From a virus: 61,638 nt of DNA. A model generated the notes under the pieces. That model was not told the DNA's origin and did not search any database. It saw only the letters and a list, made by a program, of their open reading frames with translations. Below, one piece after another: positions 5,686-22,393 of this stretch. The number at the start of each line of letters is the position of its first letter. Positions within the stretch are counted from its first letter, which is position 1. A program made the position numbers and the translations under genes. The stretch covers positions 1 to 61,638 of the IMG/VR virus record IMGVR_UViG_3300029309_000027, one strand, 5' to 3'.

Positions 5686-5691
5686 TCATCT

Positions 5692-5699: not shown

Positions 5700-5703
5700 T
5701 AAT

Positions 5704-6156
5704 ATGTCAACACTATCAGTTTCTATCGCTGAGAAGCTTAACCTGAACGGTAAGGACCGTGGCAGTGTTATCACAAAAGACATCTCCAGTATCACTGAGA
5801 CCTTCCACCGCATTATGGATGTGAAGACCTCAGGGACGCAGACGATCTTAGAGATGGATGCCACAGAGGGGAACTCAGCTGGTGGTAAACTCTTCAGCGA
5901 CAACGTCAAGTACTTGCGTATCACTAATTTGGACGGGACAAACTTTGTTGCCCTCACAGTGCAGAACGATGGTACTGAAGAGTACATGGTGAAGTTGGAG
6001 GCTGGCCAGAGCTACGTCCTTTTTAACAGTAGCCTTGACGCCAACGCGGCGGGAGACAATAGCGCAGCGGCAGGCAATCTGACCGCAATCGATAACGTAT
6101 TGGCCAGAGCGAATAGCGCTTCTTGCCAGGTAGAAGTTTTTGCAGCATTAGAATGA
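5704..6156 (+). CDS. Small beta-rich virion protein (150 aa)
   Basis: The 150-residue product has Thr, Ser and Ala-rich strands with YLRITNLDGTNFVALTV followed by LEAGQSYVLF. The same order (YI.I.N, then hydrophobic strand, then AG....P) occurs in the proteins at 19320-19715 and 19715-20122, so I place the three in one loose family of small structural proteins, perhaps capsid or tail decoration. It has its own promoter box four bases upstream and its stop overlaps the next start (ATGA). Function is inferred only from this resemblance and location. Confidence 0.65.
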   Translation: MSTLSVSIAEKLNLNGKDRGSVITKDISSITETFHRIMDVKTSGTQTILEMDATEGNSAGGKLFSDNVKYLRITNLDGTNFVALTVQNDGTEEYMVKLEAGQSYVLFNSSLDANAAGDNSAAAGNLTAIDNVLARANSASCQVEVFAALE

Positions 6157-6803
6157 GATTAAAAAGAAAAAATATGTACATGGGTGGGGGTAAGACCCCG
6201 ATGTACATGGGTGGTGGCATGATGTATGGTGACGGCGGCATGATGTACGGTGACGGCGGCATGATGTACGACGAGGGAGGCAAGCTCAAGATGGTCGAGA
6301 AGGACGGCAAGAAAGTCCCGTTCTTCCTGGCGGAGGAGGGAATGAAGTATGGTAACGGTGGCATGCAGCCTGATGAAGATCGTATGACTATGCCCCCCAG
6401 AGCCATGGGTCGGGATCGCTTTGCGACAGATCAATACTTTGCAGAGAAAGGAATGGAAGCCGCTTTGCGACAGGACATGCGCAAAGAAAACCGAATGGCA
6501 AATCGTGAGGGTCGTAGAACAGGGTACTTCCCCGCTCGCCCTAGCGATACCGAGTTTCTTTTAAAGCGTTTGGAGAATCCAGAGACCACAAGGGACGCCA
6601 TGGTAAATAAGGGTTTCCGTAACGAAAGCGCCCGTATGCTGGCCAGAAATGCTTTGCTTGCTGCTCTTGGTCTCGGTGTCAGCGAATACACCAAAACCCC
6701 TAAGACCGTTCAGGGCCCCCTCGGACCTGGTGGTCAGCCTGTCCCTGTAGACTTGAACACGCTGCAGCGCATTGGAATGATGTTGGGTCTCGGTCCGTAT
6801 TAA
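6153..6803 (+). CDS. GG-repeat basic virion protein (216 aa)
   Basis: I chose the ATG at 6153 because it overlaps the previous stop. The first 70 residues are built of short repeats: YMGGGK, PMYMGGG, then MMYGDGG twice, MMYDEGGK, and later MKYGNGGM. These match the GG-K tag found on other late proteins of this phage. The middle is charged (many Arg, Glu, Met), and the C-terminal 60 residues contain a hydrophobic helix (ARNALLAALGLGV) and a Pro/Gly-rich stretch. Such Tyr-x-Gly-Gly repeat proteins are common in uncultured marine phages, but their role is unknown. Confidence 0.7.
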   Translation: MRLKRKNMYMGGGKTPMYMGGGMMYGDGGMMYGDGGMMYDEGGKLKMVEKDGKKVPFFLAEEGMKYGNGGMQPDEDRMTMPPRAMGRDRFATDQYFAEKGMEAALRQDMRKENRMANREGRRTGYFPARPSDTEFLLKRLENPETTRDAMVNKGFRNESARMLARNALLAALGLGVSEYTKTPKTVQGPLGPGGQPVPVDLNTLQRIGMMLGLGPY

Positions 6804-6866
6804 TGCCGAACAAGCATTACTTCAATCCCAGGCTGAAGAGGTATGACAAAATAAAATCAGGGAAGC

Positions 6867-7343
6867 GTGAAGCTAGAGGTAGTAAGGTTCAGTTCAGAGA
6901 TGGACTCCACAAACGGAGCGCTCTTCGACATAACAGACGACACTCGCCGCTTTCTGTGTTACACACTAGAAGACGAGCATCGTGATGAAAAAGTGGCTGG
7001 GGAAACCAGAATACCTGCTGGAGAGTATAGTGTTACTCTTAGAAGAATTGGTGGGTTTCATGATCGATATGCTAGTCGCTTTAGGACGATACACAAAGGC
7101 ATGTTGTGGGTCCGTGATGTACCTGGTTTTGAATACATTCTCATTCATTGCGGTAATACTGATGAGAATACTTCTGGGTGTTTGCTTGTGGGTGATACAC
7201 AGGAAAACAATCAGATCAAGAAGGGTGGGTTCATAGGACACAGTACCAGAGCATACTTCCGAGTTTACCCTTACATCGCTTCTGCTATTGAGCGAAAGGA
7301 AGAAGTTACTATCTTGTACTCTGATTTCGATACACCTAGATAA
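6867..7343 (+). CDS. DUF5675-like protein, probable lysis-associated enzyme
   Basis: The start is a GTG at 6867, since an in-frame stop lies at 6852. Residues about 90-108 read ILIHCGNTDENTSGCLLVG, the hallmark of the DUF5675 family, which has conserved His and Cys residues and is usually found beside phage lysis genes. Some members have been compared with L,D-transpeptidase-like folds, so a peptidoglycan-directed activity is possible but unproven. The small membrane protein that follows three bases later supports a lysis context. The length of 158 residues is usual for the family. Confidence 0.75.
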   Translation: MKLEVVRFSSEMDSTNGALFDITDDTRRFLCYTLEDEHRDEKVAGETRIPAGEYSVTLRRIGGFHDRYASRFRTIHKGMLWVRDVPGFEYILIHCGNTDENTSGCLLVGDTQENNQIKKGGFIGHSTRAYFRVYPYIASAIERKEEVTILYSDFDTPR

Positions 7344-7345
7344 CT

Positions 7346-7516
7346 ATGCTGGATTTTATCATTGAAAACTGGGGTGAGCTGGTCATTGGACTCCTCGCTT
7401 TCGCCAAGGTTGTTGTGAACCTGACTCCAACGGAGACCGATAACAAGATTTTCGGCTGGCTCGATAGTATGATTAACATGATCATCGAGGACCGCAGAAA
7501 AACCCCTACGAGCTGA
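7346..7516 (+). CDS. Small one-helix membrane protein, holin-like (56 aa)
   Basis: The product has one membrane segment (about residues 12-27, LVIGLLAFAKVVVNL) followed by LTPTETDNKIFGWLD and a basic tail ending RRKTP. This layout, immediately after a DUF5675 gene, suggests a small holin or membrane anchor. It starts two bases after the preceding stop. Its last 11 bases overlap the end of the minus-strand gene 7506-7919. Confidence 0.6.
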   Translation: MLDFIIENWGELVIGLLAFAKVVVNLTPTETDNKIFGWLDSMINMIIEDRRKTPTS

Positions 7517-7919
7517 GGCTCCTGTAGAACCTCTGTACCATTAGCCTTCCCTTTTGAGTTAAGGCGTATCTAACCCTGTAGTTGTATTTAGTCTCCTCCC
7601 TGAAGAGGTGGTCCTCTCTGGTTTGAGACGGGGTTAGTCTATCGAAGTACTTATGGATGTAACCTTCTTTCATCAGAGGGTATACTATCCTATCCCCTAG
7701 TTTTTTCTTGTGCATCCCGTATTCTTTTGATGCATACTTGAGGGTCCAGAATTCTAGGTCATATGCCCAGAGCAGGAAGAATACTTCCTTTTGGTATAAT
7801 TCATACTTGTCTTGAGTTTCCAGCAAGCTGGACCTCAGTGACTTGAGGTGGTTGTTATTTAAGTATCTTTGAGGTAGACGGGAACTTTCCCGAAACATCT
7901 TATTTATAGACCGCTTCAT
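7506..7919 (-). CDS. MarR-like winged-helix regulator
   Basis: This is the only minus-strand gene in the late block. From the ATG at 7919 the product has 137 residues. Its centre reads DLEFWTLKYASKEYGMHKKKL, then GYIHKYF and, after a charged wing, YALTQKGRLMVQRFY, which fits a winged-helix MarR-type domain with a recognition helix, beta wing and C-terminal helix. It would bind DNA, most likely as a dimer. Its start codon overlaps, on the opposite strand, the start codon of the 7918-8247 gene, so transcription of the two could be mutually exclusive. An internal Met seven residues later is an alternative start. Confidence 0.7.
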   Translation of the reverse strand: MKRSINKMFRESSRLPQRYLNNNHLKSLRSSLLETQDKYELYQKEVFFLLWAYDLEFWTLKYASKEYGMHKKKLGDRIVYPLMKEGYIHKYFDRLTPSQTREDHLFREETKYNYRVRYALTQKGRLMVQRFYRSLSS

Positions 7920-8247
7920 GTCTGAATTATCTAAGCAGGACCAATTTCTCCTTGAGATCCAAAAGGTACATCGTATCGTAGATATGCTAGTCGATAAGTA
8001 TGAGATGAGGGGTGAGGTGGTCAACATCATGCTTACTGGGATGATCTCTACAGACGAGTTTGATGAGCCTGTTTTAAAGGCTGTGTTTAGTATGGATGTG
8101 GAGAGTGAAGATGTTCTGGATGAGACATTTGACTTCTTGAGATTCTCTTATTTCTTCCCTGGTCCAGAAGACGAAGAGTGGGAGTCTGAAAATTGGTATA
8201 AAGATTTACTTGACAGTTTGGGTGGTATTGACCCATCTTTAAACTGA
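7918..8247 (+). CDS. Acidic hypothetical protein (109 aa)
   Basis: No family is recognised. The N-terminal half is helical (KQDQFLLEIQKVHRIVDMLV), while the second half is strongly acidic with aromatic residues (PGPEDEEWESENWYKD). The ATG at 7918 shares the CATG tetranucleotide with the start of the divergent MarR-like gene. The stop overlaps the next ATG by one base (TGATG). Confidence 0.6.
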   Translation: MSELSKQDQFLLEIQKVHRIVDMLVDKYEMRGEVVNIMLTGMISTDEFDEPVLKAVFSMDVESEDVLDETFDFLRFSYFFPGPEDEEWESENWYKDLLDSLGGIDPSLN

Positions 8248-8483
8248 TGAATGGACTTGTAAGAAAAATTATTATAGGGCGAGACCCGAAAAACGCCATG
8301 GCATATTATGTAGGTATGCGAGCTGGCTCTGGAGAAGTTTGTGCGATCGTACCTGATGATGAGCATCTTGATCGGTATGGTAAGATGAGATACCTGGTTT
8401 ATCAGGAGACAGACGGCACTCAAGCGCTATGGAAGGCGGTTGAAGACATGCCCTGTATAGTAGAGTTTGACTGTAACTTTTGA
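8247..8483 (+). CDS. Hypothetical protein (78 aa)
   Basis: A 78-residue soluble protein of mixed alpha/beta character containing KNAMAYYVG, EVCAIVPDDEHL and YLVYQETDG. It is translationally coupled to the previous gene by a one-base overlap and lies three bases before the GroES-like gene. Function is unknown. Confidence 0.6.
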   Translation: MNGLVRKIIIGRDPKNAMAYYVGMRAGSGEVCAIVPDDEHLDRYGKMRYLVYQETDGTQALWKAVEDMPCIVEFDCNF

Positions 8484-8485
8484 CC

Positions 8486-9061
8486 ATGAATCTTCTTTAT
8501 TACTTCGTCGTGAGGTTGCCCAAGCGACTCAACGACGAAATCAAGATGGGGGATCAAGAGATCTTCTTGGAGACCAAGTTTAACGAGTTTGAGCACAGGA
8601 TACATGAAGGGGAGGTGGTCCACACCCCCTTGAAATTTGACACCCCTGTAAAACCAGGGGACACCCTGTACTTCCACCACTTAGTAGTAATCAATGGGGG
8701 TATGCCCTTTGCTGACTACAAGGACCACTACGTGGTGAGCTTCGATCCAGATGTAGCGATCAACAGTCATGCTTATGCTTACACCCCACAAGGGACTAAG
8801 GACATCCTGCCCTTAGATGGATGGAGCATATTAGAGCCCACCTTTGAGGAGGGGGTTGAGGAGTCTATGTTCGATGTGGTTGAGTTTGAAAAGAAACCCA
8901 GGACTACTGGTATTGTTTCGTCTCCAAGTCAGGATCTTGAGCGTCTAGGCGTTGAGGTGGGAGATACTGTTGGGTTCAAAAAAAATATGGACTACACGTT
9001 CCAAGCCTTTGGAAAGGACTTTTTCCGTACCAGGACAGAAGACTTGCTGTATGTCCTCTAA
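8486..9061 (+). CDS. Tandem GroES-like co-chaperonin
   Basis: The 191-residue protein appears to contain two GroES-like domains. The first has EGEVVHTP (41-48) and VKPGDTLYF (55-63). The second has TGIVSSP (141-147), VEVGDTVGF (156-164) and a terminal RTRTEDLLYVL, matching the GroES order GEVLAVG, VKVGDIVIF and ESDILAIV. GroES proteins cap GroEL, and phage versions such as T4 gp31 help fold the capsid protein. The acidic insert around 118-135 could carry the mobile loop or a substitute. The location just upstream of terminase and portal fits a role in head assembly. The fold is inferred from motifs and should be modelled. Confidence 0.65.
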   Translation: MNLLYYFVVRLPKRLNDEIKMGDQEIFLETKFNEFEHRIHEGEVVHTPLKFDTPVKPGDTLYFHHLVVINGGMPFADYKDHYVVSFDPDVAINSHAYAYTPQGTKDILPLDGWSILEPTFEEGVEESMFDVVEFEKKPRTTGIVSSPSQDLERLGVEVGDTVGFKKNMDYTFQAFGKDFFRTRTEDLLYVL

Positions 9062-9341
9062 GAAGTTTACGACTTTGGATGCTGCCAAGCGTCTGATGAA
9101 GAGCATGGAGGTGGCTATAGATAACATGATTGAGGAGATCAAAAAACCTGTAGACTCTGAGATCAATGGTAGTGCTAGAAAAGCTGAACTACAGTCCATT
9201 AAGCAGACAGCGATAGATTGTAAAGAGTTGCTTGTTGAAAGACAGAAGCTAGAGCAGATGATGAAAGATCTTACATTGGGTGGGCACGTCTCCGAGGGTA
9301 AGGATTACACTGGGGGGTTTGCCGAAAAATTCTCGAAATGA
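9051..9341 (+). CDS. Helical protein before terminase; possible small terminase (96 aa)
   Basis: The start at 9051 overlaps the GroES-like gene by 11 bases. The product is nearly all alpha-helical and charged, with heptad-like stretches (LVERQKLEQMMKDL). Its size, helical content and position two genes before the large terminase would suit a small terminase subunit, but no helix-turn-helix is clear, so this is a weak proposal. Its stop overlaps the next start (ATGA). Confidence 0.55.
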   Translation: MSSKKFTTLDAAKRLMKSMEVAIDNMIEEIKKPVDSEINGSARKAELQSIKQTAIDCKELLVERQKLEQMMKDLTLGGHVSEGKDYTGGFAEKFSK

Positions 9342-9643
9342 AAGTAGAAGACACTCTCCCGCACGACGCCCTCATGATCGCTTTAGAGGACAACGAATGC
9401 CTTTTGGCTGACGGGTTTGACTCGGCCCTTATTGGCATCACGGAGGGGCCAAACCCAGTTGCAGTTTACGACATCAACAGAATGATCGAGCACCTCTTTA
9501 AGAAGGAGGGTATGACTCCAGAAGACGCTCGAGAGTATTTAGAGTTTAATGTTATCGGTGCTTATGTTGGGGAGAAGACCCCGCTGTACATTGATTTAGA
9601 TTTTGGTAGGGCGTGTGACATAGGCCACCCAGATGAGTTCTGA
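9338..9643 (+). CDS. Conserved phage protein of unknown function (101 aa)
   Basis: The sequence contains ALIGITEG, PVAVYD, then EDAREYLEFNVIGAYVGEKTP. I recall this pattern (ALIG...VYD...A.EYLEFN...AYVG..TP) from many unrelated phages, where its function is not known. It lies between a helical protein and the large terminase and overlaps the preceding stop by four bases. Confidence 0.7.
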   Translation: MKVEDTLPHDALMIALEDNECLLADGFDSALIGITEGPNPVAVYDINRMIEHLFKKEGMTPEDAREYLEFNVIGAYVGEKTPLYIDLDFGRACDIGHPDEF

Positions 9644-9651
9644 GTTTTGTT

Positions 9652-11769
9652 ATGCTGACAGAAGTAAAAGGCTATGAAGAAAAAGCTGTGGGCATTTGCC
9701 CCAACGGTACGCTGGGCGACCACATCGAAATCGGTGGGGTTCTCATTGTCCTTCCCAAGGCCCCTAAAGTCAGAGACATCCTCTTCCACGATCTTGCCGT
9801 TGAGGATCAGCGATGGAGGAGAACTGATCTACCAAAAGAGATATCGCGTATACGCTCTATGGATGAGTGGGCGGAAATGCCGAGGGAATTTAGAGAAAAG
9901 TTTCGTCCATATATCGAAGAAGAGTTTCGGCGTAGGCGTGAAGGGGTTTGGTTTTATAATCGAGGTGATGCTACATACATCACTGGTCGGCACTATATGA
10001 TGCTGCAGTGGTCAGTGCTCGACGTGGGGGCGCCGTACTACCTTGAATTTCAAAGAGATATATTCTTACATTTGGCTGCGTGTGAGGCAGACCCTCGTTG
10101 TATTGGACAGCTATATACTAAGTGCCGTAGATCAGGATACACTAACATATGTTCTTCTGTCATCGTTGACGAGGCTACCCAGGTAAAAGACAAGCTCCTG
10201 GGGATACAGAGTAAGACGGGTAAAGACGCACAAGAGAACATCTTTATGAAGAAGGTGGTCGCTATGTTTCGTAAGTACCCCTTCTTCTTTAAGCCCATCC
10301 AAGACGGCACCACCAACCCGCGTATGGAGCTTGCTTTCCGTGAGCCATCTAAAAAGATTACGAAGAACAACAAGACGGCCACAGTTGGGGACGCCTTGAA
10401 TACAGTGATTAACTGGAAGAATACGACTAACAACGCCTACGACGGGGAGAAGCTGCACTTATTGTATTTAGATGAGGCAGGGAAATGGGAAAAACCCACA
10501 GATATAAGAGAGGCTTGGAGGATTCAGAGGACCTGTTTGATAGTGGGTCGGAAGGTGGTCGGAAAGGCTATGGTCGGAAGCACCGTAAACCCCATGGGAA
10601 AAGGGGGAAGAGAGTACAAGGACCTCTGGGCGGATTCGAATCCTGGGGAGAGGAACAAGAATGGTAGGACCAGGTCTGGTCTATACAGGTTGTTCATCCC
10701 TGCATACGATTCCTTAGAGGGGTTCTTTGATCAGTACGGTAAATCTGTTGTAGAAGACCCTGAGGATATGGTGATGGGGATTGATGGGGAGATGATCCAC
10801 ATGGGTGCTAAGACGTTTCTAAAAAACGAGCGAGACAGCTTGCGCCACGATGCTTCTGAGTTAAACGAAACAGTTCGTCAGTTTCCCTTTACAGAAGACG
10901 AAGCGTTCAGAGATAGCATTGAGTCCACCCTATTTAATATCGGCCACATCTACGAGCAGGTGGAGCACAACGACTCTCTGTACCCCAACCCAATAGTATC
11001 TGGACAATTCTCTTGGAAGGGTGGGGTAGAAGACAGTGAGGTCGTCTTTACCCCAGACCCCAATGGCAGATTCAAGGTGGCGTGGATGCCGCCCCCAGCA
11101 CTTCGGAACGTCAAGAGTTATGAGAAAAGCAAAAGAGTACCACCTCACGTACACCTTGGTTGTGGCGGGGTGGATAGCTACGATCTCGACGCTACTGTGG
11201 ATGGGAGAGGATCCAAAGGTGCGCTCCATTTGTACAACAAGTTCAATATGGAGGTGCCTGCTAATATGTTTGTTCTTGAGTACGCTGCCCGTCCGCCGCT
11301 GGCTTCGATATTTTATGAAGATGTGCTTATGGCGGCGGTCTTCTACGGGTACCCCATCTTAATCGAGAACAACAAGTATGGTATCGCCAGGTACTTTGAG
11401 CAGCGTGGTTACGATGGCTATCTCATGGATCGCCCAAAACACTTGCTGTCTGGTAGTGGTGCGGTCAAAGTAAAAACCAAGGGGATCCCATCTAATTCTT
11501 TAGATGTGATTCAGTCCCATGCTCAGGCTATCGAGGCTTACATACATGAACACGTCGGCATCAACAGAGACACTGGCGAGATGGGGAAGATGTATTTCAA
11601 CGCTACTATGGAGGACTGGATTGGTTATGACATCAACAATAGAACTAAGTTTGACTTGACAATTAGTTCTGGTCTTGCATTATTAGCTTCACAAAAAGTA
11701 AAACCCACTGCCCCCCCTACAGACTTTAGCGAAAGACGCTTTTTTAGGCGATATAAAGTCAGGGGCTAA
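9652..11769 (+). CDS. terL: Terminase large subunit
   Basis: This 705-residue protein is the DNA-packaging motor. The ATPase part contains a degenerate P-loop-like CRRSGYT near residue 156, where the usual lysine is absent, and a clear Walker B segment LHLLYLDEA near 266-274. The C-terminal RNase H-like nuclease half begins with GVDSYD near 506, which supplies the first catalytic aspartate, and ends in a short basic tail. Length and order match large terminases of Bacteroidetes podoviruses and crAss-like phages. The portal gene follows after a promoter box. Confidence 0.92.
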   Translation: MLTEVKGYEEKAVGICPNGTLGDHIEIGGVLIVLPKAPKVRDILFHDLAVEDQRWRRTDLPKEISRIRSMDEWAEMPREFREKFRPYIEEEFRRRREGVWFYNRGDATYITGRHYMMLQWSVLDVGAPYYLEFQRDIFLHLAACEADPRCIGQLYTKCRRSGYTNICSSVIVDEATQVKDKLLGIQSKTGKDAQENIFMKKVVAMFRKYPFFFKPIQDGTTNPRMELAFREPSKKITKNNKTATVGDALNTVINWKNTTNNAYDGEKLHLLYLDEAGKWEKPTDIREAWRIQRTCLIVGRKVVGKAMVGSTVNPMGKGGREYKDLWADSNPGERNKNGRTRSGLYRLFIPAYDSLEGFFDQYGKSVVEDPEDMVMGIDGEMIHMGAKTFLKNERDSLRHDASELNETVRQFPFTEDEAFRDSIESTLFNIGHIYEQVEHNDSLYPNPIVSGQFSWKGGVEDSEVVFTPDPNGRFKVAWMPPPALRNVKSYEKSKRVPPHVHLGCGGVDSYDLDATVDGRGSKGALHLYNKFNMEVPANMFVLEYAARPPLASIFYEDVLMAAVFYGYPILIENNKYGIARYFEQRGYDGYLMDRPKHLLSGSGAVKVKTKGIPSNSLDVIQSHAQAIEAYIHEHVGINRDTGEMGKMYFNATMEDWIGYDINNRTKFDLTISSGLALLASQKVKPTAPPTDFSERRFFRRYKVRG

Positions 11770-11775
11770 CTTTAT

Positions 11776-11783
11776 TATATTTG
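11776..11783 (+). promoter_or_regulatory. TATATTTG minus-7 box before portal
   Basis: A perfect TAnnTTTG box lies 21 bases before the portal ATG at 11805. It would give a short leader of roughly 15 bases that is A/C-rich with no Shine-Dalgarno sequence. Confidence 0.65.
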
Positions 11784-11804
11784 TGGGTAATAACTACACC
11801 CCAC

Positions 11805-14228
11805 ATGTACAACACGAAGCCAGGTGATCCAGGCGGATTCCCAGATCCGCTCGTGTCGCAAGAGGAGAAGTTACAGAAGAGCTACGGGCTAAAGTACGCC
11901 AAGGCTATTGAAGGGCAATGGGGTAATACTCAAGATAATACAAGTACATACGGGGGGAGAAAGAATGTATTTGCGCGTAACAGGGATTACGCAAATGGCA
12001 CGCAGGACACAGCCATATACAAGCAACTCCTGAACACTAACAACCCAAACAATGGGGATGGTAGTTTGATGAACTTGGATTACACCCCTGTCCCAGTCCT
12101 ACCTAAGTTCGTCAGGGTGGTGGTCAACAAGATCCTGTCTCGCAACATGCATCCCAACGTGGAGGCTATTGACCCTTTGTCTTCTAGTGAAAAAGACAAG
12201 GAGAAGAACATGATGAAGAACAAGGTCCAGGCCAGACCACAGATGATGGCTTTGGAGGAGAAGATGGGTTCTCCAGTTCTTGATACCCCAGCAGAACAGA
12301 TACCAGAGACTCTTGAGGAGGCGGAGATCTTGATGGACACTAACCTCAAGACTGACGCTGAGATTGCCGCGCAGATTGCTACTGACACTACGTTGCAGTG
12401 GAATAACTTTGAAGACAACACCTACCGCAGATGCATCAATGACTTGGCGTCTCTAGGTATGGCTGTTGTCAAGCGAAGCAATGATCCGAACTACGGTATC
12501 AATCTAGAATACGTTGACCCCATCCACTTCATTCACAGCTATACAGAGGACCCAAACTTTGAGGACATCACTTACGCTGGACACGTCAGAGAGATTACTC
12601 TGGATGAGTTGAAGCGGATTGCTGGGGACTCTTTGACCGATCAGGATATGAAGAAGCTGGCTAAAAAAGCCAGGCGCTCTACATCCAATAAGTATCCTAA
12701 CCACCCATATGCCAGTGGGGGCTTGCAGAAAGAGAACTTCAGTAACTACGTCATCGAGGTCTTGGACTTCGAGTTTATTTCTGTTGACTGCATGTACTTC
12801 GAAGAGAAGGAGAACCAGTATGGTAACACCAACTTCTTCTACGAGGGTTTCGAATACAAAGAGAGGAAGGGCAGTGTGTACGATCGCACCCCTCACAAGA
12901 TGGAGGTCGAGGTCGTTTATTGCGGCACCTACATCCTAGGTACCGACCACCTCATTAAGTACGGGCTTCAGACTAACGTACCGAAGAACATCCATGACAT
13001 CTCTAGAGCTCGGATGTCTTACTCTGTGGCCGCCACAAACATGGTGGCAAACATGCCCAAGTCCATGGTCGATGGGTGCGTGGGGTTTGCGGACATGCTG
13101 CAGCTGACGCACTTGAAGATTCAGCAGGCGATTGCAAAAGCCAAGCCCGATGGCCTGGTCATTGACATCGAGGGGTTGGAGAACGTGCAGCTCGGGAAGG
13201 GAGGAGAGCTCCAGCCTTTGGATCTTCACGACATCTACGAGCAGACTGGTGTCTTCTACTATCGCAGTAAAAACCCTGAGGGCGGCTTCCAGAACCCGCC
13301 AGTTCGAGAGATCGGCAATAGTATCCGAAACATCAATGAGTTGATCGGACTGTACAATCACTACCTGCGTATGATCCGAGACACCACTGGGATCAACGAG
13401 GCTGTGGATGCGTCTACCCCTAAGAGCGATGCGCTGGTCGGGGTCCAGCAGCAAGCCATTGCGGCCAGTAACAACGCCACGTATGACATCACCAATGCGT
13501 CCATGGTGTTGTTCAAGGCGGTTTGCCAGGACGTGGTAAAGTGCCTCCAGATCCTGCCGACAGAAACCATTATCCATAAGGCTTACAGGAGCGCAATTGG
13601 AGAGAGCAATATGTCTGTCTTGCAGACTTTTTCTGACCTCCCTATGTACAACTTTGGTGTCCATGTGATGAAAGACATGGAAGATAAAGACAAGGCATAC
13701 TTGGAGCAAAACATTCAGATGTCTTTGAATCAAAAAGAAATCGACCTAGAGGATGCTATTGCGATTCGCAACCTAAAAGACATCAACCAGGCGGAGAGGC
13801 TTTTGATTCTCAGGAGACGTAAGCGTATGGATAAAGTTCAGCAGCAACAGATGCAGATGCAGCAAATGCAGTCTCAGCAAGCACAGCAGGCCGAACAGAT
13901 TAAGGCTCAATCAAGAGCTCAAGAGATTCAGCTTAAAGCTCAGACAGAAGCTCAGTTGATTCAGGCTCAGGCTATGGCGGATGTTGAGGTCGCTAAGATC
14001 AAGCATCAGATGGAGATGGAGATAACGCAACTTAAAATGCAAGTCAAGGGCCAGGGTGTTGACATTGAGTTCCAGAACAGAAAGTCCATAGAGACCCAGA
14101 AAGACAATAGAAAAGACGACAGAGTAAAGCAGCAGGCTGTGGAGCAGAGCAAGCTCATCTCTCAAAGACAGGGAAAGCGGGCGGAGCTAGAGGAGGAGCC
14201 TAAGATTGACCTTTCACAAATCATTTGA
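11805..14228 (+). CDS. Portal protein
   Basis: I chose the ATG at 11805 (MYNTKPGDPGG) rather than an upstream TTG that falls within the promoter box. The 807-residue protein has the composition and position of a podovirus portal: a variable N-terminus, a mixed alpha/beta wing (VVKRSNDPNYGINLEYVDP), a stem/crown region with QAIAASNNATYDITNAS, and a long Gln-rich coiled coil from about 675 to 780. The size resembles portals of T7-like and crAss-like phages. It forms the dodecameric DNA channel at the capsid vertex and docks the terminase encoded upstream. Confidence 0.88.
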   Translation: MYNTKPGDPGGFPDPLVSQEEKLQKSYGLKYAKAIEGQWGNTQDNTSTYGGRKNVFARNRDYANGTQDTAIYKQLLNTNNPNNGDGSLMNLDYTPVPVLPKFVRVVVNKILSRNMHPNVEAIDPLSSSEKDKEKNMMKNKVQARPQMMALEEKMGSPVLDTPAEQIPETLEEAEILMDTNLKTDAEIAAQIATDTTLQWNNFEDNTYRRCINDLASLGMAVVKRSNDPNYGINLEYVDPIHFIHSYTEDPNFEDITYAGHVREITLDELKRIAGDSLTDQDMKKLAKKARRSTSNKYPNHPYASGGLQKENFSNYVIEVLDFEFISVDCMYFEEKENQYGNTNFFYEGFEYKERKGSVYDRTPHKMEVEVVYCGTYILGTDHLIKYGLQTNVPKNIHDISRARMSYSVAATNMVANMPKSMVDGCVGFADMLQLTHLKIQQAIAKAKPDGLVIDIEGLENVQLGKGGELQPLDLHDIYEQTGVFYYRSKNPEGGFQNPPVREIGNSIRNINELIGLYNHYLRMIRDTTGINEAVDASTPKSDALVGVQQQAIAASNNATYDITNASMVLFKAVCQDVVKCLQILPTETIIHKAYRSAIGESNMSVLQTFSDLPMYNFGVHVMKDMEDKDKAYLEQNIQMSLNQKEIDLEDAIAIRNLKDINQAERLLILRRRKRMDKVQQQQMQMQQMQSQQAQQAEQIKAQSRAQEIQLKAQTEAQLIQAQAMADVEVAKIKHQMEMEITQLKMQVKGQGVDIEFQNRKSIETQKDNRKDDRVKQQAVEQSKLISQRQGKRAELEEEPKIDLSQII

Positions 14229-14229
14229 A

Positions 14230-14697
14230 ATGAGTAAAGTAAATCTAGACGTAGCAGAGAAACTAGACATCACCTGCAGACGTGGTGACACTTTCGAGTT
14301 GACTCTTACACTTAAGGATAGTTCAGGCACTGCGTTACCCTTGGTAACAGACGATTACAAATTTCTGATGCAGGTAAGAGCCAGTAAGCTTTTAGTGGCA
14401 AGAGCGCAGCGACGGACGCCAACTGGTGGTGGCGGTGAGGCCGACTCAGAGGATGAATATGGAGAGGATGGAATTGTAATTGGCAGCTCTGGTCAGGGCA
14501 AGCCAGGTAGGTGCAATTTCACTTTCAAAGATCTTGATAATAATGGTAATGTCACTGTGTTTTTGTCTGCCGCTGACATGAGAAAGGTTCCTTCAGGACG
14601 TTATAAATACGACATCCAGTTTCTAAAAGGAGATACCCACAAAACTCTCCTTGAGGGTAGATTCACTGTAAACGAGGATGTCTCAAAGAGTCTGTAA
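14230..14697 (+). CDS. Ig-like/BppU-N-like virion protein
   Basis: Residues about 11-45 read [19 protein letters not shown] then LMQVRAS, resembling the N-terminal domain of baseplate/fibre proteins (BppU-N type) that anchors receptor-binding proteins. A Gly/Asp/Glu-rich loop (about 67-90) interrupts the beta sandwich. The C-terminal half has [10 protein letters not shown] and LLEGRFTV strands. It sits two bases after the portal stop and overlaps the fibre gene start (TAATG), so a fibre-anchoring role is likely. Confidence 0.65.
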
Positions 14698-16361
14698 TGT
14701 CAACTCAAGTAACAGTAACAGGGGGGACTAGAGTAACAGTATCAGTACCATCCACTGGATCCGTTTCAGTAATTAGCACTGGTGTAAAGGGGGAGACTGG
14801 GGCCACAGGAGCAACAGGTCCCGCAGGTCCCGCAGGCGCTACGGGCGCTACGGGCGCTACGGGCGCAACAGGTCCAACAGGCGCAACAGGCCCTCAGGGA
14901 CCACAAGGTCCTGCGGGTTCAGATGGTGCCGACGGTGCTGATGGTGGCACAAACATCGTAGTGGATACCTCCCCGCAGCTTGGCGGGGACCTAGATGTAA
15001 ATGGTAATGACATTGTCAGCACTTCCAACGGGGACATTGATATCAAGCCCAATGGAGACGGGAAGGTCAATATAGATAGCTCTAGTTCATCGAGTGGGGT
15101 CAAAATATCAGATGGTCACGTCGAACTAAGAAGTGGCACTGGTAGCCCCGCCAAGATTGACTTTTACTGCGAAAGTGCTGCGGCCCACAAGGTCACAGTT
15201 CAGGCTCCCGCACACGCTAGTTTTTCAGGGGATGTGCAGTTCACCCTCCCAACATCTAACGGCAGTAGCGGTCAGGTATTGAAGACAGATGGGTCTGGAA
15301 ACCTGTCGTATGTAAATCAAACGTCTGACACTCAGCTTACCACCGAGGAAGTCCAAGACATAGCTGGTGGAATGTTCACTGGCAACACCGAAAGTGGTAT
15401 CACTGCGACCTATCAAGACGCGGACGGCACCATCGACTTAGAAGTGGGTGGCCTGACGGTGGCGCAGGGTGGAACAGGCGCCACTTCGTTTGCTGACAAG
15501 TCAGTGTTGATTACGCAGGACAGCGGGACCGATACAGTATCTGCTGCGGCCATGTCCACTAACGGTCAGCTTTTGATTGGGGGGACTAGCGGACCTGCTG
15601 TAGCCACCCTGACGGCTGGTAGCAACGTCACGATTACCAATGCTGACGGAGCCATTACTATTGCTGCCTCAGGTGGTGGTGGTGGTGGTGGCGGTGACAT
15701 CGAGGGTGTTACCGCAGGGGATGGGCTCTCTGGTGGTGGCACCACGGGCACTGTGACTTTGAATGTGGGGGCTGCTCAGACGACAATTACTTCGATCATC
15801 AACAGCAGCCTGACGAAGATTGGTACGGCTACCGATCAAGAGTATATAGACTTCAGCACCGCTGATGAGGTCAACACTAAGATCAATGATACAGAGCGTC
15901 TCAGCGTAACAAACACGGGCGTTGACGTTACTGGTGAGCTCACATCAACAAAGAATGTCTTTGCTAAAACCTCAAACACGGACTTCAGTGTTCAAGGGGA
16001 TATTGTAAAGATTGGGACTGGTAGCACAACTCAAGGCGAATTGTGCTACTACAAATCTGACGGGACTTGGGCTGCAGCCGATGCAGACGCTGCTGCAACT
16101 TCTGGTGGGTGTCTTCTTGCTATCGCGCTCGGCACAGACCCAGATGTTGACGGCATGCTTTTGCGCGGAATGTTCACTAGAGACCACCAAGACGCAAGCC
16201 TGGCTGATGAGCTGTATGTCTCTACTACGGCAGGGGATATTACTGGCACCCCGCCGTCTGGTAACGGTGATGTCGTCCGTGTGGTGGGGTACTGCCTAGA
16301 CAGCACGAATGGTCAGATTTGGTTCAACCCATCAAATGACTTCATTGTCCTGTCAGTATAA
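14697..16361 (+). CDS. Tail fibre with collagen-like segment
   Basis: After a short beta N-terminus, residues about 32-80 form a Gly-X-Y collagen-like region with repeated GAT, GPA and GPQ triplets. This is followed by fibre-type repeats, including [18 protein letters not shown] and [16 protein letters not shown], a poly-glycine stretch near 322-330, and a C-terminal beta domain. Collagen-like phage fibres are trimeric. The AQGGTGAT repeat is typical of fibre shafts. It very likely contributes to receptor recognition together with the next gene, which it overlaps by one base. Confidence 0.88.
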
Positions 16362-17671
16362 TGCCAGACATAGCATCATTTAACGGAATCGACGTGGGTA
16401 ATATAGCATCAATAAACGGTCAGACAATTGCCTCGGGAGGAGGGGCTTATAACCCTGTAACTGATAGCGGAACATACACTGAGACGCTCCCCACTTCTGG
16501 GCTGCTAAAGTTTGGTGGGTTCAGGCAGAGTAATGACTCCAGCAGCAACGGCTTCAAATACAATTATGGGGCTGAACCAGTGACAAATCTATCGAGCGAT
16601 AAAGACGCCCAATACGTTAGAGTTGCTGAGTCAAAAAGCGACTTTGTAAAAATTAGCTATGGCAGGTATTCCGCTTTCGCGATCACCGCGTCAGGACAGC
16701 TTTGGGAGATTGGTCAACAATCGAGTTATACGGAAGGGACAGCATCAGACAGTTGGCAGCAAGTCACAGGTGTCGGAGACTCTGATACTGGATGGACAGC
16801 GGTATCTTCTAGTTATCTAGGGGCTTTGGGTATTAACAGCGGCAAGATGTATTACATCGGGGGGAACAGTTATGGGGAGTCGGGAATGGGCAGCACCTCC
16901 ACGAGCTATGGAACTTGGACTCAAGTTGGGTCTGATTCTGACTGGCAAGATGTTAAGAGGGGGAGGTACTACTCTATGGCGACGAAGAGCAGTAGCAATG
17001 TTTTATATGTAGCGGGTAGAAACAGTAAGTACGCGACTGGACTTGACACTACTAGCGGGAACACCACTAGTTGGACTGCTATCAATAGTGACAACTTTAC
17101 CAACACCAACGTAACTTTCTTTACCGTGAATGCAGACGGTGGGTTCTTGATAAGAGGTGGTGAGGTGTACGCTTGGGGGGATGAGGACAGCAACGAAAGG
17201 TTCGGCCTTAACTCCTCGTCAGACTTGACTAAGCCGACCCAAACTGGAAATGTCGGGGGTAGCCTACAAAGCGATTGGGCTCAGGGCTGTCTTGCAAACA
17301 ATGCGATGCTTCTGATCAATACTTCGGGGGAGCTGTATCACGCAGGAGAGGGTACAGCTCGTAGAGGTGACGGCTCCAACACCGACAACAAGGCTGGCAA
17401 CTTTGTTCAAATAGGTAGCGATACAAACTGGGTTAGAGTGGAGGCGGACCCAACTGGTCAAACAACCAATGACTATGGTATGTCTGCACAAAAAGGAAAC
17501 AGGTTGTTCTTCTGGGGGTACAATCAATACTCAGGTGTTATCGACGGGACTTTGAGCAACACTTTTACTGCCACAGAGATTTTTGATCAAGACCTTGCGT
17601 CAGGTGACTACTGGGTTCCATTCTTAAACTATGGAGGCAGCACAAGATATGGGATTGTTGGAATCTACTAA
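16361..17671 (+). CDS. RCC1-like beta-propeller fibre/receptor-binding protein
   Basis: The start (ASFNGIDVGNIASINGQ) is a motif repeated within itself, perhaps an attachment peptide. From about residue 85 the protein has six or seven repeats containing motifs such as ALGINSGKMYYIGGN, NVLYVAGRN, GGEVYAWGDE, SGELYHAGEG and NRLFFWGYNQYSG. These are RCC1-type propeller blades. Such domains occur in phage tail tips as binding modules. The gene is coupled to the collagen-like fibre by a one-base overlap, so it is probably the distal receptor-binding unit. Confidence 0.85.
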   Translation: MPDIASFNGIDVGNIASINGQTIASGGGAYNPVTDSGTYTETLPTSGLLKFGGFRQSNDSSSNGFKYNYGAEPVTNLSSDKDAQYVRVAESKSDFVKISYGRYSAFAITASGQLWEIGQQSSYTEGTASDSWQQVTGVGDSDTGWTAVSSSYLGALGINSGKMYYIGGNSYGESGMGSTSTSYGTWTQVGSDSDWQDVKRGRYYSMATKSSSNVLYVAGRNSKYATGLDTTSGNTTSWTAINSDNFTNTNVTFFTVNADGGFLIRGGEVYAWGDEDSNERFGLNSSSDLTKPTQTGNVGGSLQSDWAQGCLANNAMLLINTSGELYHAGEGTARRGDGSNTDNKAGNFVQIGSDTNWVRVEADPTGQTTNDYGMSAQKGNRLFFWGYNQYSGVIDGTLSNTFTATEIFDQDLASGDYWVPFLNYGGSTRYGIVGIY

Positions 17672-17673
17672 TC

Positions 17674-17928
17674 ATGGCTACATATTCAGTTATAATTACG
17701 TCTGAACAAGACCTCACAGAGCAGTGGCTAGACTCTAACGTGCCTCACATGAGCTTTACCTACAATGAGGTTGAGCTGGAAGAGTGTGTCGACAATCGAG
17801 ACGGCACGTATACAGCTACATACGAGAGCATGGTGTTGCCCTCAGAGAGGACTTACACATATGTCCACCCAGTCAATGGGGAAACCACTTACACTCTTTC
17901 GGCAGGCGAATATGGCGTGAAGCCATAG
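17674..17928 (+). CDS. Small beta protein after fibre gene (84 aa)
   Basis: The product has alternating strands (YSVIITSEQ, DGTYTATYES, RTYTYVHPVNG, TYTLSAGEYG) and no membrane segment. It starts two bases after the RCC1-like gene, suggesting a fibre-associated cap or chaperone. No family is recognised. Confidence 0.6.
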   Translation: MATYSVIITSEQDLTEQWLDSNVPHMSFTYNEVELEECVDNRDGTYTATYESMVLPSERTYTYVHPVNGETTYTLSAGEYGVKP

Positions 17929-17932
17929 TATT

Positions 17933-17940
17933 TATATTTG
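17933..17940 (+). promoter_or_regulatory. TATATTTG minus-7 box, leaderless spacing
   Basis: A perfect box ends four bases before the ATG at 17945, again predicting a leaderless or nearly leaderless transcript for the cluster of very small basic proteins. Confidence 0.65.
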
Positions 17941-17944
17941 CAAC

Positions 17945-18223
17945 ATGGCCGCGTCTTCTACATCTAATAGAGTAAAAAACTTACTTAAGAAGCATGGCCT
18001 ATCTGGTGTAAACAAGGCCAAGAGAACACCTAAGCACCCGAAGAAATCGCACATCGTATTAGCGAAGGAGGGGAACAAGGTGAAGCTCATTCGTTTTGGT
18101 GAGCAGGGGGCAAAAACAAACCAGAGCGCGAAACAAAGAAAGGCGTTTAAAGATCGCCATAGAAAAAATATTAACAGGGGTAAAATGTCTGCTGCCTGGT
18201 GGGCAAACAAAGTAAAGTGGTGA
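17945..18223 (+). CDS. Conserved small basic phage protein (92 aa)
   Basis: The product is very basic and contains VKLIRFGEQG, then QRKAFKDRHRKN and KMSAAWWANKVKW at the end. I recall this order (IRFG...RRKSF.ARH...K..A.YWA.K.W) from many phages and large viruses, where it is annotated only as a domain of unknown function. It may be a head- or DNA-associated virion protein. It has its own promoter box and its stop overlaps the next start. Confidence 0.75.
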   Translation: MAASSTSNRVKNLLKKHGLSGVNKAKRTPKHPKKSHIVLAKEGNKVKLIRFGEQGAKTNQSAKQRKAFKDRHRKNINRGKMSAAWWANKVKW

Positions 18224-18426
18224 TGGATCTAACGCAGTTTGAATTACTTAGTATTGCTGGGGCTTTAATAGGAATGTGGTTGAAGTTTCAATCGGAATTC
18301 ACTACGCTAAAGTCTAGGGTCAAAGTTCTTGAAATGGACAACGGTGAGTTTAAGAGTAAGATCGACACGTTGCTTACAGAAATTCAAGAGATTAAGATGC
18401 TCCTCGCAAAAAACCAAGTACAGTAA
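18223..18426 (+). CDS. Small membrane-anchored coiled-coil protein (67 aa)
   Basis: I chose the ATG at 18223, which overlaps the previous stop as TGATG. Residues 5-20 (FELLSIAGALIGMWL) form a probable membrane helix and the rest (LKSRVKVLEMDNGEF to ILLAKN-like end) is a coiled coil. Such membrane-plus-coil proteins are often lysis or entry accessories. No family is assigned. Confidence 0.6.
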   Translation: MDLTQFELLSIAGALIGMWLKFQSEFTTLKSRVKVLEMDNGEFKSKIDTLLTEIQEIKMLLAKNQVQ

Positions 18427-18428
18427 TT

Positions 18429-18677
18429 ATGCCACAAGGAAAAGGAACATACGGGAATCAAGTAGGTCGTCCGCCTAAGAAGATGAAGGTCTTGAAGAAA
18501 GGTGGGAAGATTCCAAAACTTACGATCCTAAACAAGACAGTTATGGTTGATCCTCCAAAAGGTTTTCATTGGATGGAGGAGCAGGGCCGTTACTACTTGA
18601 TGAAGGGGGATTACAAGCCACACCCAGGAGCTGTTAAGCAAGCCAAGTTTAAGCAGGCGAACCACCCAAAAGGATAA
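18429..18677 (+). CDS. Basic GG-K protein (82 aa)
   Basis: The N-terminus MPQGKGTYGNQVGRPPKK is a pattern I recall from other marine phages. A GG-K tag (LKKGGKIPKLTILNK) follows at about 22-36. The second half has PKGFHWMEEQGRYYLMKGDYKPHPGAVKQ. It is probably a virion protein of unknown role, in a run of four basic genes joined by one- to four-base overlaps. Confidence 0.65.
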   Translation: MPQGKGTYGNQVGRPPKKMKVLKKGGKIPKLTILNKTVMVDPPKGFHWMEEQGRYYLMKGDYKPHPGAVKQAKFKQANHPKG

Positions 18678-18868
18678 TGGCTAAAAAGTTCAACCCCAAG
18701 TACACAAAGGGTAGCTCGAATGTAGCGGAGCGCAAGAAGCTGATGAGTCAGATTGCCGCCATCTACGAGAAGCATAGAGGGACTAAGGGTAAAAGAAAAA
18801 AGAAAGGGTTTCCGCCAGCGGTTGCAGCGAGGCTAAAACAACTCATGAAAAGAAGAGACAAGCTATGA
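18677..18868 (+). CDS. Very basic small protein (63 aa)
   Basis: About one third of residues are Lys or Arg, with a central helix (ERKKLMSQIAAIYEKHRG) and a C-terminal helix (AARLKQLMKRRDKL). It could bind DNA or an acidic virion partner. The start overlaps the previous stop (TAATG) and the stop overlaps the next start (ATGA). Confidence 0.6.
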   Translation: MAKKFNPKYTKGSSNVAERKKLMSQIAAIYEKHRGTKGKRKKKGFPPAVAARLKQLMKRRDKL

Positions 18869-19059
18869 AGATGAAAAAGAAAGACACCCCCAAGTACATG
18901 AAGGGTGGTGAGATCAAGAAGATGCCAGGTGGCGGCAAGATGCCCATGTACATGTACGGGGGTAAGGTCTATGCACAGGGTGGTAAGATGTTAGAGGAGA
19001 TGGCTAAAGACCCTAAGATGATGGCACAGATGAAAAGCATTGTGGGCAAATCAAAATGA
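18865..19059 (+). CDS. GG-K repeat peptide (64 aa)
   Basis: Four GG motifs follow one another: YMKGGEIKK, MPGGGKMP, MYGGKVY and AQGGKMLEEM, with Met, Tyr and Lys between them. The C-terminal 25 residues form an amphipathic helix. The repeats match those of the 216-residue protein at 6153-6803 and the tags of both polyvalent proteins. The role is unknown. Confidence 0.65.
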   Translation: MKMKKKDTPKYMKGGEIKKMPGGGKMPMYMYGGKVYAQGGKMLEEMAKDPKMMAQMKSIVGKSK

Positions 19060-19289
19060 GGGTCTACAAAAAAGGGGGGAAGACCAAGAAGAAAGGTGGG
19101 GGAATGGCAGGTCTGTCTGCCGCTCAAAAAGAAGTGTATCGCAGAGGATTGGCTGCATACATGAGTTCTGGTAATAGACCCAAAGTCTCTCAGCACGCCT
19201 GGGCTATGGCGAGAGTGAAGTCTGATTTTGGCAGAAAAGAAGCGGCTAAGATTGCGGCTAAAGCCAAGAAAAAAGGGAAGAAGAAATAA
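19056..19289 (+). CDS. Basic virion-type protein with AW-AR-KS motif (77 aa)
   Basis: It starts with a GG-K tag (RVYKKGGKTKKKGGG) and continues with QKEVYRRGLAAYMSSGNRP, SQHAWAMARVKSDFG and a Lys/Ala-rich tail. The AAY.SSG.RP...AWA.ARV.S pattern is conserved in small proteins of phages and large algal viruses, probably virion-associated. It overlaps the preceding gene by four bases. Confidence 0.7.
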   Translation: MRVYKKGGKTKKKGGGMAGLSAAQKEVYRRGLAAYMSSGNRPKVSQHAWAMARVKSDFGRKEAAKIAAKAKKKGKKK

Positions 19290-21214: not shown

Positions 21215-22393
21215 ATGGAACAAGAAGCACAAGTACAAGAGCCTGCCGTCGAGCAGGCTCCCGCACAAGAAGCGGTAACGGAGACTGTACAGGAAGCCCC
21301 TGTACAAGAGACTCAACCTGAAGCCCCTGTACAGGAGGCGCCAGCACCTGAGAACCCACCTCCGTTTGAGATCTTTGACAGCCCGCAAGATCTTGCGGCC
21401 AGCATGCAGCGAGACGCTGCCCAGGCTGCGCCAGTCGAGCAGGTTGTAGAGCAGGAGCAAAGCGCTCCACAGCCTGAGTACGTCCCACAGGAGGATCGTC
21501 AGATCCAACCTGAGCCGTACCAGCAACAGCGGTATTCGCAACAGGATGTTGAGGGTGCTGTACTGGGTTTCCTGAGCGAGAGGCTAGGGAGACAGTTCAG
21601 TTCTTTGGACGAGCTTGCACAACCGCAGTACGATCAGACGCTTGCGCCGATCGCCAAATTTGTACAGGATACTGGGAGACGCCCAGAGGATTGGTTCCGT
21701 TATCAGTCGCTCAATACGTCCGAGATGGACGATATGACTGCCGTGCGGATCCACACTGCTTCTGAGCATCCTAACCTGACTGGCGAAGAGCTCAATCTAC
21801 TGGTCAATAGGAAGTATAGCGTGTCGTCGGAGGGTTCCGAAGACGATAAGCGAATGGCCCAACTTCAGTTGAAGATGGATGCAGCGAAGGCACGGGAGAC
21901 CATTGAGTCTTTCCGTTCTAGTTACATGACTCCAAAAGAGGTCGAGACCCCCGTCGAAGACGAGCAACCGCTTGTCGATGAGCGCTGGGTGTCTGAGATG
22001 TCTTACAACGTAGACGCTATGGAAGGTGTTGAGTTTGATCTGGGTGGCGAAAAGTCATTCACGTTTGGACTTGACGACCAGTACAAGCAAGAGCTCAAGT
22101 ACAAGAATGCCAACCTGGAGAACTTCTTCGACCCCTACGTCAATGAGGCGGGGGAATGGGACTACGACCTTTTGTCGTCTCACCGTGTCGTAATCGATAA
22201 CATCGATAAAATCGTTCAGTCTGCCTATCGGCAGGGTATGAGCGAGGGACAGCGCGGAGTGGTGAATACGGCTGCTAACGTCCAGGCCAAACCAACAGAC
22301 GACGTGTCTGGACAGCAAAACTCAAATCCGCTTGGCGAACAAGTCAGGCAGATCCTTAACAACAACAGGTCCACTTTGACCTTCAACATCTAA
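21215..22393 (+). CDS. Probable scaffolding protein
   Basis: The 392-residue protein is acidic and starts with about 75 residues of Gln/Glu/Pro/Ala-rich low complexity (repeats of VQE-A-P). The middle and C-terminal parts are helical and charged, with a conserved-looking FDPYVNEAGEWDYDLLSSH segment at about 304-324. It lies immediately upstream of the major capsid gene, the usual location of scaffold genes. I infer that it guides prohead assembly. A protease domain is not evident. Confidence 0.7.
   Translation: MEQEAQVQEPAVEQAPAQEAVTETVQEAPVQETQPEAPVQEAPAPENPPPFEIFDSPQDLAASMQRDAAQAAPVEQVVEQEQSAPQPEYVPQEDRQIQPEPYQQQRYSQQDVEGAVLGFLSERLGRQFSSLDELAQPQYDQTLAPIAKFVQDTGRRPEDWFRYQSLNTSEMDDMTAVRIHTASEHPNLTGEELNLLVNRKYSVSSEGSEDDKRMAQLQLKMDAAKARETIESFRSSYMTPKEVETPVEDEQPLVDERWVSEMSYNVDAMEGVEFDLGGEKSFTFGLDDQYKQELKYKNANLENFFDPYVNEAGEWDYDLLSSHRVVIDNIDKIVQSAYRQGMSEGQRGVVNTAANVQAKPTDDVSGQQNSNPLGEQVRQILNNNRSTLTFNI

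What the first reader, a model, noticed from the sequence alone, without database searches (positions are those of the whole stretch)
6153..19289. A recurring basic GG-K tag on at least six late proteins
Seen directly: a Lys/Arg-x-(Tyr/Met)-x-GG-K type motif occurs at the N-terminus and C-terminus of the 429- and 1242-residue proteins (540-1829, 1826-5554), as tandem repeats in the 216-residue (6153-6803) and 64-residue (18865-19059) proteins, and once or twice in the 82- and 77-residue proteins. The two large proteins even end alike (GGKIPYKIIKR and GGKVIKKSPFKLIKK). Inference: this could be a sorting tag for packaging proteins into the capsid or a protease-processed signal. I know similar Tyr-x-Gly-Gly repeats from uncultured marine phages, where no role is established.
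Basis: partly seen in the sequence, partly recalled or inferred. Interest (0 to 1): 0.72.

Follow-up and report, generated by a model that had tools for sequence, protein, structure and literature searches.

The report
Shared end tags on phage cargo proteins
In a group of uncultured marine phages that resemble crAssphage, many unrelated proteins made late in infection carry the same short positively charged address label at one or both ends; the label most likely sends them into the virus particle for delivery into the next host cell, but this has not been tested at the bench.

Summary
The basic, aromatic-x-x-GG element is on six late window proteins and absent from early-strand ones. In 35 relatives it marks 69 of 360 late proteins upstream of the terminase gene (shuffled termini: mean 5.2, maximum 12) but 1 of 146 downstream. 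It behaves as a detachable end tag: N-terminal form about [KR]xx[KR]K[YFM]xxGG, C-terminal form about [YF]xxGG[KR][IVF][KR]..KK. It sits on dozens of proteins with no detectable mutual homology, and C-terminal tags stay conserved where the adjacent body falls to about 30% identity or less. The window phage is crassvirus-like (muzzle-protein match), and crassvirus virions store cargo proteins in head and tail. Tagged relatives include transglycosylase (SLT) proteins resembling internal virion proteins, beside a separate untagged endolysin-like gene. Best explanation: a cargo-packaging tag working like the T4 capsid-targeting sequence, but not a member of that family (both ends used, strongly basic, no recognisable maturation protease). 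Protease processing or a plain DNA-binding tail are less likely. No tagged isolate or proteome was found, so virion location is inferred. The tag itself is near certain; its function is probable.

The parts
540..1829 (+). 429-aa tagged late protein, candidate cargo; body without Pfam, PHROG or NCBIfam match
   Evidence: homolog L249 58% identical overall
540..575 (+). N-terminal tag MRLRKMQNGGYP (Met variant)
   Evidence: 9 of 12 identical in L249 homolog; aligns with N-tag of the 1242-aa protein
1782..1826 (+). C-terminal tag LNEKGGKIPYKIIKR
   Evidence: 13 of 15 identical in L249 homolog while residues 186-414 are 30% identical; same ending GGKIPYKIVKK on an otherwise unrelated 218-aa protein in L259
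1826..5554 (+). 1242-aa tagged late protein, candidate cargo; C-terminal ~75-aa domain (YDRLPK..TDE.GNTW) shared with L005, L008, L058, L250
1826..1909 (+). N-terminal tag MKNRKKKAPGAYLKKKKVKKYQEGGKEP, net charge +10
   Evidence: first 25 residues 88% identical to the G011 homolog; most 25-residue windows from 226 to 1175 are 4-36% identical; charge
5486..5551 (+). C-terminal tag ending KAYQRGGKVIKKSPFKLIKK, net charge +8
   Evidence: last 25 residues 64% identical to the G011 homolog; same tag on L008 and L250 proteins
6153..6803 (+). 216-aa protein with six tandem tag units at its N-terminus
   Evidence: homologs in L005, L006, L250, L251 keep a tag but vary in repeat number
6153..6371 (+). 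tandem tag repeats (YMGGGK..YMGGGMMYGDGG..YDEGGK..YGNGGM)
18429..18677 (+). 82-aa basic protein (pI 10.3), one tag KVLKKGGKIPKL after a GRPPKK leader
   Evidence: family 86 members with KYNKGGKLKV in the same place
18865..19059 (+). 64-aa basic protein (pI 10.0), three tag units
   Evidence: relatives in L010, L038, L079
19056..19289 (+). 77-aa DUF5824 protein with N-terminal tag MRVYKKGGKTKKKGGG
   Evidence: Pfam PF19141 4.5e-8; the matching pelagiphage HTVC111P gp59 (62% over 32 residues) has no tag
6867..7343 (+). untagged DUF5675 protein, candidate endolysin, next to a small holin-like ORF 7346-7516
   Evidence: Pfam PF18925 6.9e-25; endolysin role inferred from position
9652..11769 (+). 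terminase large subunit, untagged
   Evidence: phrog_6681 6e-199
11781..14228 (+). portal protein, untagged
   Evidence: phrog_6547 8e-193
21215..22393 (+). probable scaffold (by position) with acidic N-terminus; possible partner of basic tags
   Evidence: net -21 in first 120 residues; also acidic in untagged isolates, so not discriminating
22410..23825 (+). major capsid protein candidate, untagged
   Evidence: phrog_13704 virion structural protein 2.5e-105; 52-68% identical in nine relatives
28798..35979 (+). crassvirus-type muzzle protein
   Evidence: Pfam crAss_MUZ 4.3e-11

Best explanation
The element is a detachable cargo tag. Late proteins that are to be loaded into the new particle (head, possibly the tail barrel) carry a flexible basic peptide, [KR]-rich + aromatic-x-x-Gly-Gly, at the N-terminus, the C-terminus or both. 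The peptide is bound by a shared component of the assembling particle, so that very different bodies (large variable proteins, peptidoglycan transglycosylases, small basic proteins) are co-packaged and delivered at the next infection. Shown here: the tag's reality, end location, late-gene restriction, detachability, and conservation above the adjacent body. Inferred: that tagged proteins are in the virion, that the tag is what puts them there, and what reads it (acidic scaffold, capsid inner face or portal are candidates).
For: Restricted position: 69 of 360 late proteins upstream of TerL tagged, in 32 of 35 loci, against composition-preserving shuffles of 5.2 (max 12) proteins and 4.9 (max 11) loci; 1 of 146 downstream of TerL. 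Late versus early: 35/480 versus 2/254 proteins. Sequence-specific: the aromatic sits at -3 of N-terminal GG in 66 of 196 cases against 4 at -4 and 4 at -5; K/R peaks at -4 and -5; after C-terminal GG, K/R peaks at +2, +4, +6. Detachable: N-tags on 37 BLAST-separate families and C-tags on 12, by the regular expression used (some are false positives); DUF5824 exists with and without it. Conserved apart from the body. Cargo-type bodies: SLT transglycosylase proteins with an N-tag, L006:2506-3135 (pooled best 8.8e-10) and L251:170-2548 (6.5e-17; phrog_342 'internal virion protein with endolysin domain' 4.5e-13), while both loci also hold the untagged DUF5675 homolog. Turnover as for T4 internal proteins: tagged families occur in a median of 2 loci against 12 for untagged late ones. 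Virion type: crassvirus muzzle match; crAss001 virions store cargo in capsid and tail (PMC10172136). The C-terminal tag is modelled as unstructured (pLDDT 32-38, weak model).
Against: No virion proteome of a tagged phage was available; the isolates examined lack the tag and a tag consensus finds no phage record. The LPD38 polyvalent-type protein of the window (39861-45464), a likely cargo protein, is untagged, so the tag is not needed for all cargo. The crAss001 cargo genes inspected carry no such terminal tag. The obvious partner, the acidic scaffold, is equally acidic in untagged phages. Some tagged proteins are tiny and basic and could be simple DNA binders.
Confidence: 0.57

Rival explanations
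1. The tags are generic basic, glycine-rich tails that bind DNA (or RNA) or promote condensates; proteins enter heads, if at all, by clinging to DNA. No dedicated reader exists.
For: Tags are +3 to +10 in net charge and several carriers are tiny proteins of pI 10-11; the 82-aa protein has a GRPPKK leader; the small cluster also holds a minor-head/DNA-pilot-like protein; the tag is modelled as disordered.
Against: Fixed spacing of the aromatic at -3 and K/R at -4/-5, and C-terminal endings conserved to the last residue on unrelated proteins, exceed what charge alone needs; shuffles that keep terminal composition do not reproduce them.
Confidence: 0.2
2. The GG is a processing site: a phage or host protease cuts after GG (as adenain-type proteases do in other viruses) during maturation, and the flanking basic residues guide it.
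For: GG-X cleavage sites are known in other virus groups (own knowledge); terminal location of the elements.
Against: No recognised protease domain in the late proteins scanned (one sub-threshold Peptidase_C8 match at E 0.01, score 15.8 against cut-off 27); conservation runs to the final residue after GG; tandem units with GGM, GGG and GGK are not a uniform site.
Confidence: 0.08
3. The tag directs proteins elsewhere: to the outside of the particle, the host membrane or a lysis complex.
For: The tagged block sits next to the putative endolysin and holin-like genes; SLT domains could act in lysis.
Against: No signal peptides were noted by eye (no predictor was run); the DUF5675 gene is untagged and separate; a second tagged cluster lies before scaffold and capsid genes.
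Confidence: 0.1
4. The N-terminal Lys-rich starts merely help translation initiation and the rest is drift.
For: Most tags follow a start codon within about 30 residues.
Against: The same element lies at C-termini, its spacing is fixed, and it survives while the neighbouring body diverges.
Confidence: 0.03

Closest known systems
T4 capsid targeting sequence (CTS) of internal proteins IPI, IPII, IPIII and Alt
   Same: Short end sequence shared by otherwise non-homologous, fast-evolving late proteins; Ip1-3 share no homology except the leader that packages them (PMC3012670, PMC12373910).
   Different: T4 CTS is N-terminal, 10-20 residues, and cleaved by the gp21 prohead protease (PMC5694885); here both ends are used, the tag is strongly basic with aromatic-x-x-GG, and no prohead protease or conserved cleavage motif was found. 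No direct sequence comparison with T4 CTS was run.
crAss001 cargo proteins (gp45, gp46, RNA polymerase subunits)
   Same: The window phage has a crassvirus muzzle protein, and crassvirus virions hold cargo in capsid and tail (PMC10172136).
   Different: The crAss001 cargo genes inspected carry no terminal GG tag; no packaging tag is described in the passages read.
Polyvalent proteins of phages (injected multidomain proteins)
   Same: Large, variable late proteins thought to be packaged and injected (PMC5512222); the window has one LPD38 protein.
   Different: The tagged 1242-aa and 429-aa proteins match no LPD or other Pfam model; no common packaging tag appears in the passages read.
Encapsulin cargo-loading peptides (own knowledge, not tested)
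   Same: A short C-terminal peptide loads unrelated proteins into an HK97-fold shell.
   Different: Different setting, C-terminal only; no relationship tested.

Membership tests
T4-type capsid targeting sequence | Short sequence shared by otherwise unrelated late proteins | tested here: met
T4-type capsid targeting sequence | N-terminal only, 10-20 residues | tested here: not met
   C-terminal copies on about 20 families by inspection; N- and C-terminal on the same protein
T4-type capsid targeting sequence | Removed by a prohead protease at an LxE-type site | tested here: inconclusive
   No prohead protease profile match among late proteins scanned; an LLE in the 429-aa protein is not kept in its L249 homolog; profiles can miss remote proteases
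T4-type capsid targeting sequence | Carriers are inside the virion and injected | not testable with these tools
   No proteome of a tagged phage; isolates untagged
Crassvirus-type virion | Muzzle protein and related terminase | tested here: met
   crAss_MUZ 4.3e-11; terminase related to Cellulophaga and elemo phages and, weakly, gut crAss-like phages
Polyvalent (LPD) proteins | Recognisable LPD or effector domains in the tagged proteins | tested here: not met
   No curated match for 540-1829 or 1826-5554; untagged 39861-45464 does have LPD38
Adenain-type GG-X processing system | A cognate cysteine protease encoded by the virus | tested here: inconclusive
   No curated match; only a sub-threshold Peptidase_C8 hit in 26219-27052, outside the tagged block

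The most novel reading that the evidence does not exclude
A general address system for loading proteins into phage particles, built on a basic aromatic-x-x-GG peptide used at either or both ends, independent of a maturation protease, and spread across many uncultured environmental tailed phages (similar elements also outside the crAss-like group), so that the cargo and anti-defence repertoire of these phages can be read from sequence.
Probability: 0.4. Interest if true: 0.83.

Novelty: new variant of a known kind. Interest (0 to 1): 0.66.

Why it matters
If the tag is a packaging address, it turns a large set of unnamed late genes in uncultured marine phages into predicted injected proteins, just as the T4 leader let internal proteins be listed from genomes. 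It would make 'which proteins do crAss-like phages inject, and how are they chosen?' directly testable, and could serve as a way to load chosen reporter proteins into such particles in laboratory strains.

Tried and rejected
Virion proteomics by homology: the relatives phi38:1, phi19:3, elemo, Panino, Gundel and crAss001 lack convincing terminal tags and gave none; tblastn of the 1242-aa and 216-aa proteins, the 837-aa L129 protein and a tag consensus found no phage record. Acidic scaffold as a tag-specific partner: equally acidic in untagged phages. GG protease: no curated match. DNA scan for the PFKxIKK-stop ending with TAA returned only chance hits; the window's own copy ends in TGA. AlphaFold of the C-terminal two-thirds of the 1242-aa protein (mean pLDDT 39) and of its C-terminal domain (55) were too poor for fold searches, which were not run. 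Literature searches found no description of the tag (open-access subset only).
Full report
WHAT WAS CHECKED. The window is a 61,638-base IMG/VR virus record. In the 14,904 residues of late (+ strand) proteins, [KYM]x0-3GG[KM] occurs 34 times against a shuffle mean of 5.5 and maximum of 15; in 3,516 residues of early (- strand) proteins it occurs 0 times. Comparing the 429- and 1242-residue proteins directly, the two best alignments are the tag regions: residues 2-35 with 17-49 at the N-terminus (E 0.048) and the extreme C-termini (E 1.3); neither is significant alone, but nothing else aligns better.

WHOSE GENOME. The terminase is closest to a spring-water podovirus (MW202828, 50%), Flavobacterium elemo phages (41%) and Cellulophaga phages (35-36%), and more weakly to gut crAss-like phages. 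A crassvirus muzzle protein is present (PF25731, 4.3e-11). Eighty IMG/VR relatives were fetched by terminase and nine larger records read over most of their length.

THE ELEMENT IS A TERMINAL TAG. In the relatives, N-terminal GG is preceded by an aromatic at exactly -3 in 66 of 196 cases, against 4 at -4 and 4 at -5; Lys/Arg peaks at -4 and -5 (61, 56). After C-terminal GG, Lys/Arg peaks at +2, +4 and +6 (31, 30, 24). An N-tag expression hits 59 of 547 proteins in 37 BLAST-separate families, a C-tag 12 families, both 4; some hits are false positives (for example GroES-like family 22 and reverse-strand frames), so these counts are upper estimates. The test I rely on most: upstream of TerL, 69 of 360 late proteins in 32 of 35 loci are tagged, against 5.2 (max 12) proteins and 4.9 (max 11) loci when only the terminal residues are shuffled among themselves; downstream of TerL 1 of 146 is tagged (proteins of 80 residues or more, so the small basic cluster before the capsid gene is not counted there). 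Across ten genomes 35 of 480 late and 2 of 254 early proteins have a strict terminal tag (p = 3e-5). Terminase, capsid and tail proteins are untagged in nearly all genomes (a weak hit in one portal).

THE TAG IS DETACHABLE AND SELECTED. The closest homolog of the 429-residue protein (L249) keeps 9 of 12 N-tag and 13 of 15 C-tag residues, while residues 186-414 before the C-tag are 30% identical; residues 13-185 are also well conserved (83%), so the contrast is clear only at the C-terminus. The homolog of the 1242-residue protein in G011 is 88% identical over the first 25 residues and well conserved to about residue 225, falls to 4-36% per 25-residue window from 226 to 1175, and rises to 64% in the last 25. 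The ending GGKIPYKI[IV]K[KR] sits on the 429-residue protein and on a 218-residue protein in L259 that is otherwise not detectably related. Homologs of the 216-residue protein keep a tag but vary in repeat number. DUF5824 occurs with the tag here and without it in pelagiphage HTVC111P. Tagged families are found in a median of 2 loci, untagged late ones in 12 (p = 7e-7), a pattern of rapid turnover.

WHAT THE CARRIERS ARE. Most match nothing. Exceptions: an N-tagged SLT transglycosylase in the pooled scan of 50 tagged proteins (Pfam SLT 8.8e-10; phrog_342 'internal virion protein with endolysin domain' 6.2e-8), which I assign to L006:2506-3135 from its sequence and from the weak SLT match of its L005 homolog, because the pooled scan does not name the member; and N-tagged L251:170-2548 (SLT 6.5e-17; phrog_342 4.5e-13). 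Both loci also carry an untagged DUF5675 homolog and a holin-like ORF, so the SLT protein is probably not the endolysin. Outside this group, tagged L108 and L135 share a 45-residue N-terminal module with two PHROG head-and-packaging families and with phage 121Q gp51, annotated as a structural protein (the basis of that annotation was not checked).

MECHANISM. crAss001 virions store cargo proteins in capsid and tail (PMC10172136). In T4, internal proteins share only a short leader that packages them (PMC3012670, PMC12373910). The pattern here, one short end sequence on many unrelated late proteins of a variable locus, fits the same logic, and I judge a cargo-packaging tag most likely (0.57). 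Reader and virion location are unproven. The C-terminal tag is modelled as disordered (pLDDT 32-38), but the whole model is weak. An acidic scaffold would be a natural partner, yet it is equally acidic in untagged relatives.

ALTERNATIVES. A generic nucleic-acid-binding tail (0.2) explains the charge but not the fixed spacing or the conserved last residues. GG-X proteolysis (0.08) lacks a recognised enzyme and does not explain conservation after GG. Targeting elsewhere (0.1) and translation-start effects (0.03) are less likely. LPD38 in the untagged 39861-45464 protein shows that cargo, if that is what it is, need not be tagged.

NOVELTY. No description was found in the searched open-access papers, and no isolate record matches the tag consensus. 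The logic is known from T4; the sequence, use of both ends and apparent lack of a maturation protease differ. I class it as a new variant of a known kind.

Noticed in passing
window 36959-38098: 379-aa protein ends with GGYIGEQGG..EGEFSHDTNKKAV..ELTGGEVVFNPEQ, resembling the SH..GGI.I..GGEYIIKK element that follows GG tags in L127, L142, L148 and L151.
   Followed up: no
window 17945-18223: 92-aa basic protein matches phrog_220 'minor head protein and DNA pilot' (1.1e-5) next to the tagged small-protein cluster.
   Followed up: no
window 39861-45464: 1867-aa untagged protein with LPD38 (polyvalent protein domain), last large gene of the late block.
   Followed up: partly
L108:683-1369, L135:3532-3993, L208:1685-2476: A second N-terminal module (SKKQxxxMxAAxxNxxFAKKxGxP) is shared by unrelated proteins, including two PHROG virion structural families and phage 121Q gp51; it may be another head-targeting leader.
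   Followed up: partly
window 5565-5702: 45-aa ORF ending EEKLESGEITCNIDSPEDCESCSG, conserved between cargo-type genes in L006 and L250.
   Followed up: no
window 7506-8030: Minus-strand gene inside the late plus-strand block, conserved in the same place in L006, L250, L251 and L258.
   Followed up: no
window 8480-9061: 193-aa protein weakly matches Cpn10 (E 0.013); the gene near the terminase in Cellulophaga and elemo phages is annotated co-chaperonin GroES.
   Followed up: no
window 16361-17671 and 14697-16361: RCC1-like protein and collagen-repeat fibre between portal and the small tagged cluster.
   Followed up: no
L168, minus strand, first 94 residues: C-terminal fragment ending YNRGGAVYKKPLMNLKY weakly matches the profile of the 1242-aa C-terminal domain plus tag (E 0.007), directly before a terminase-like gene of another phage type.
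   Followed up: no
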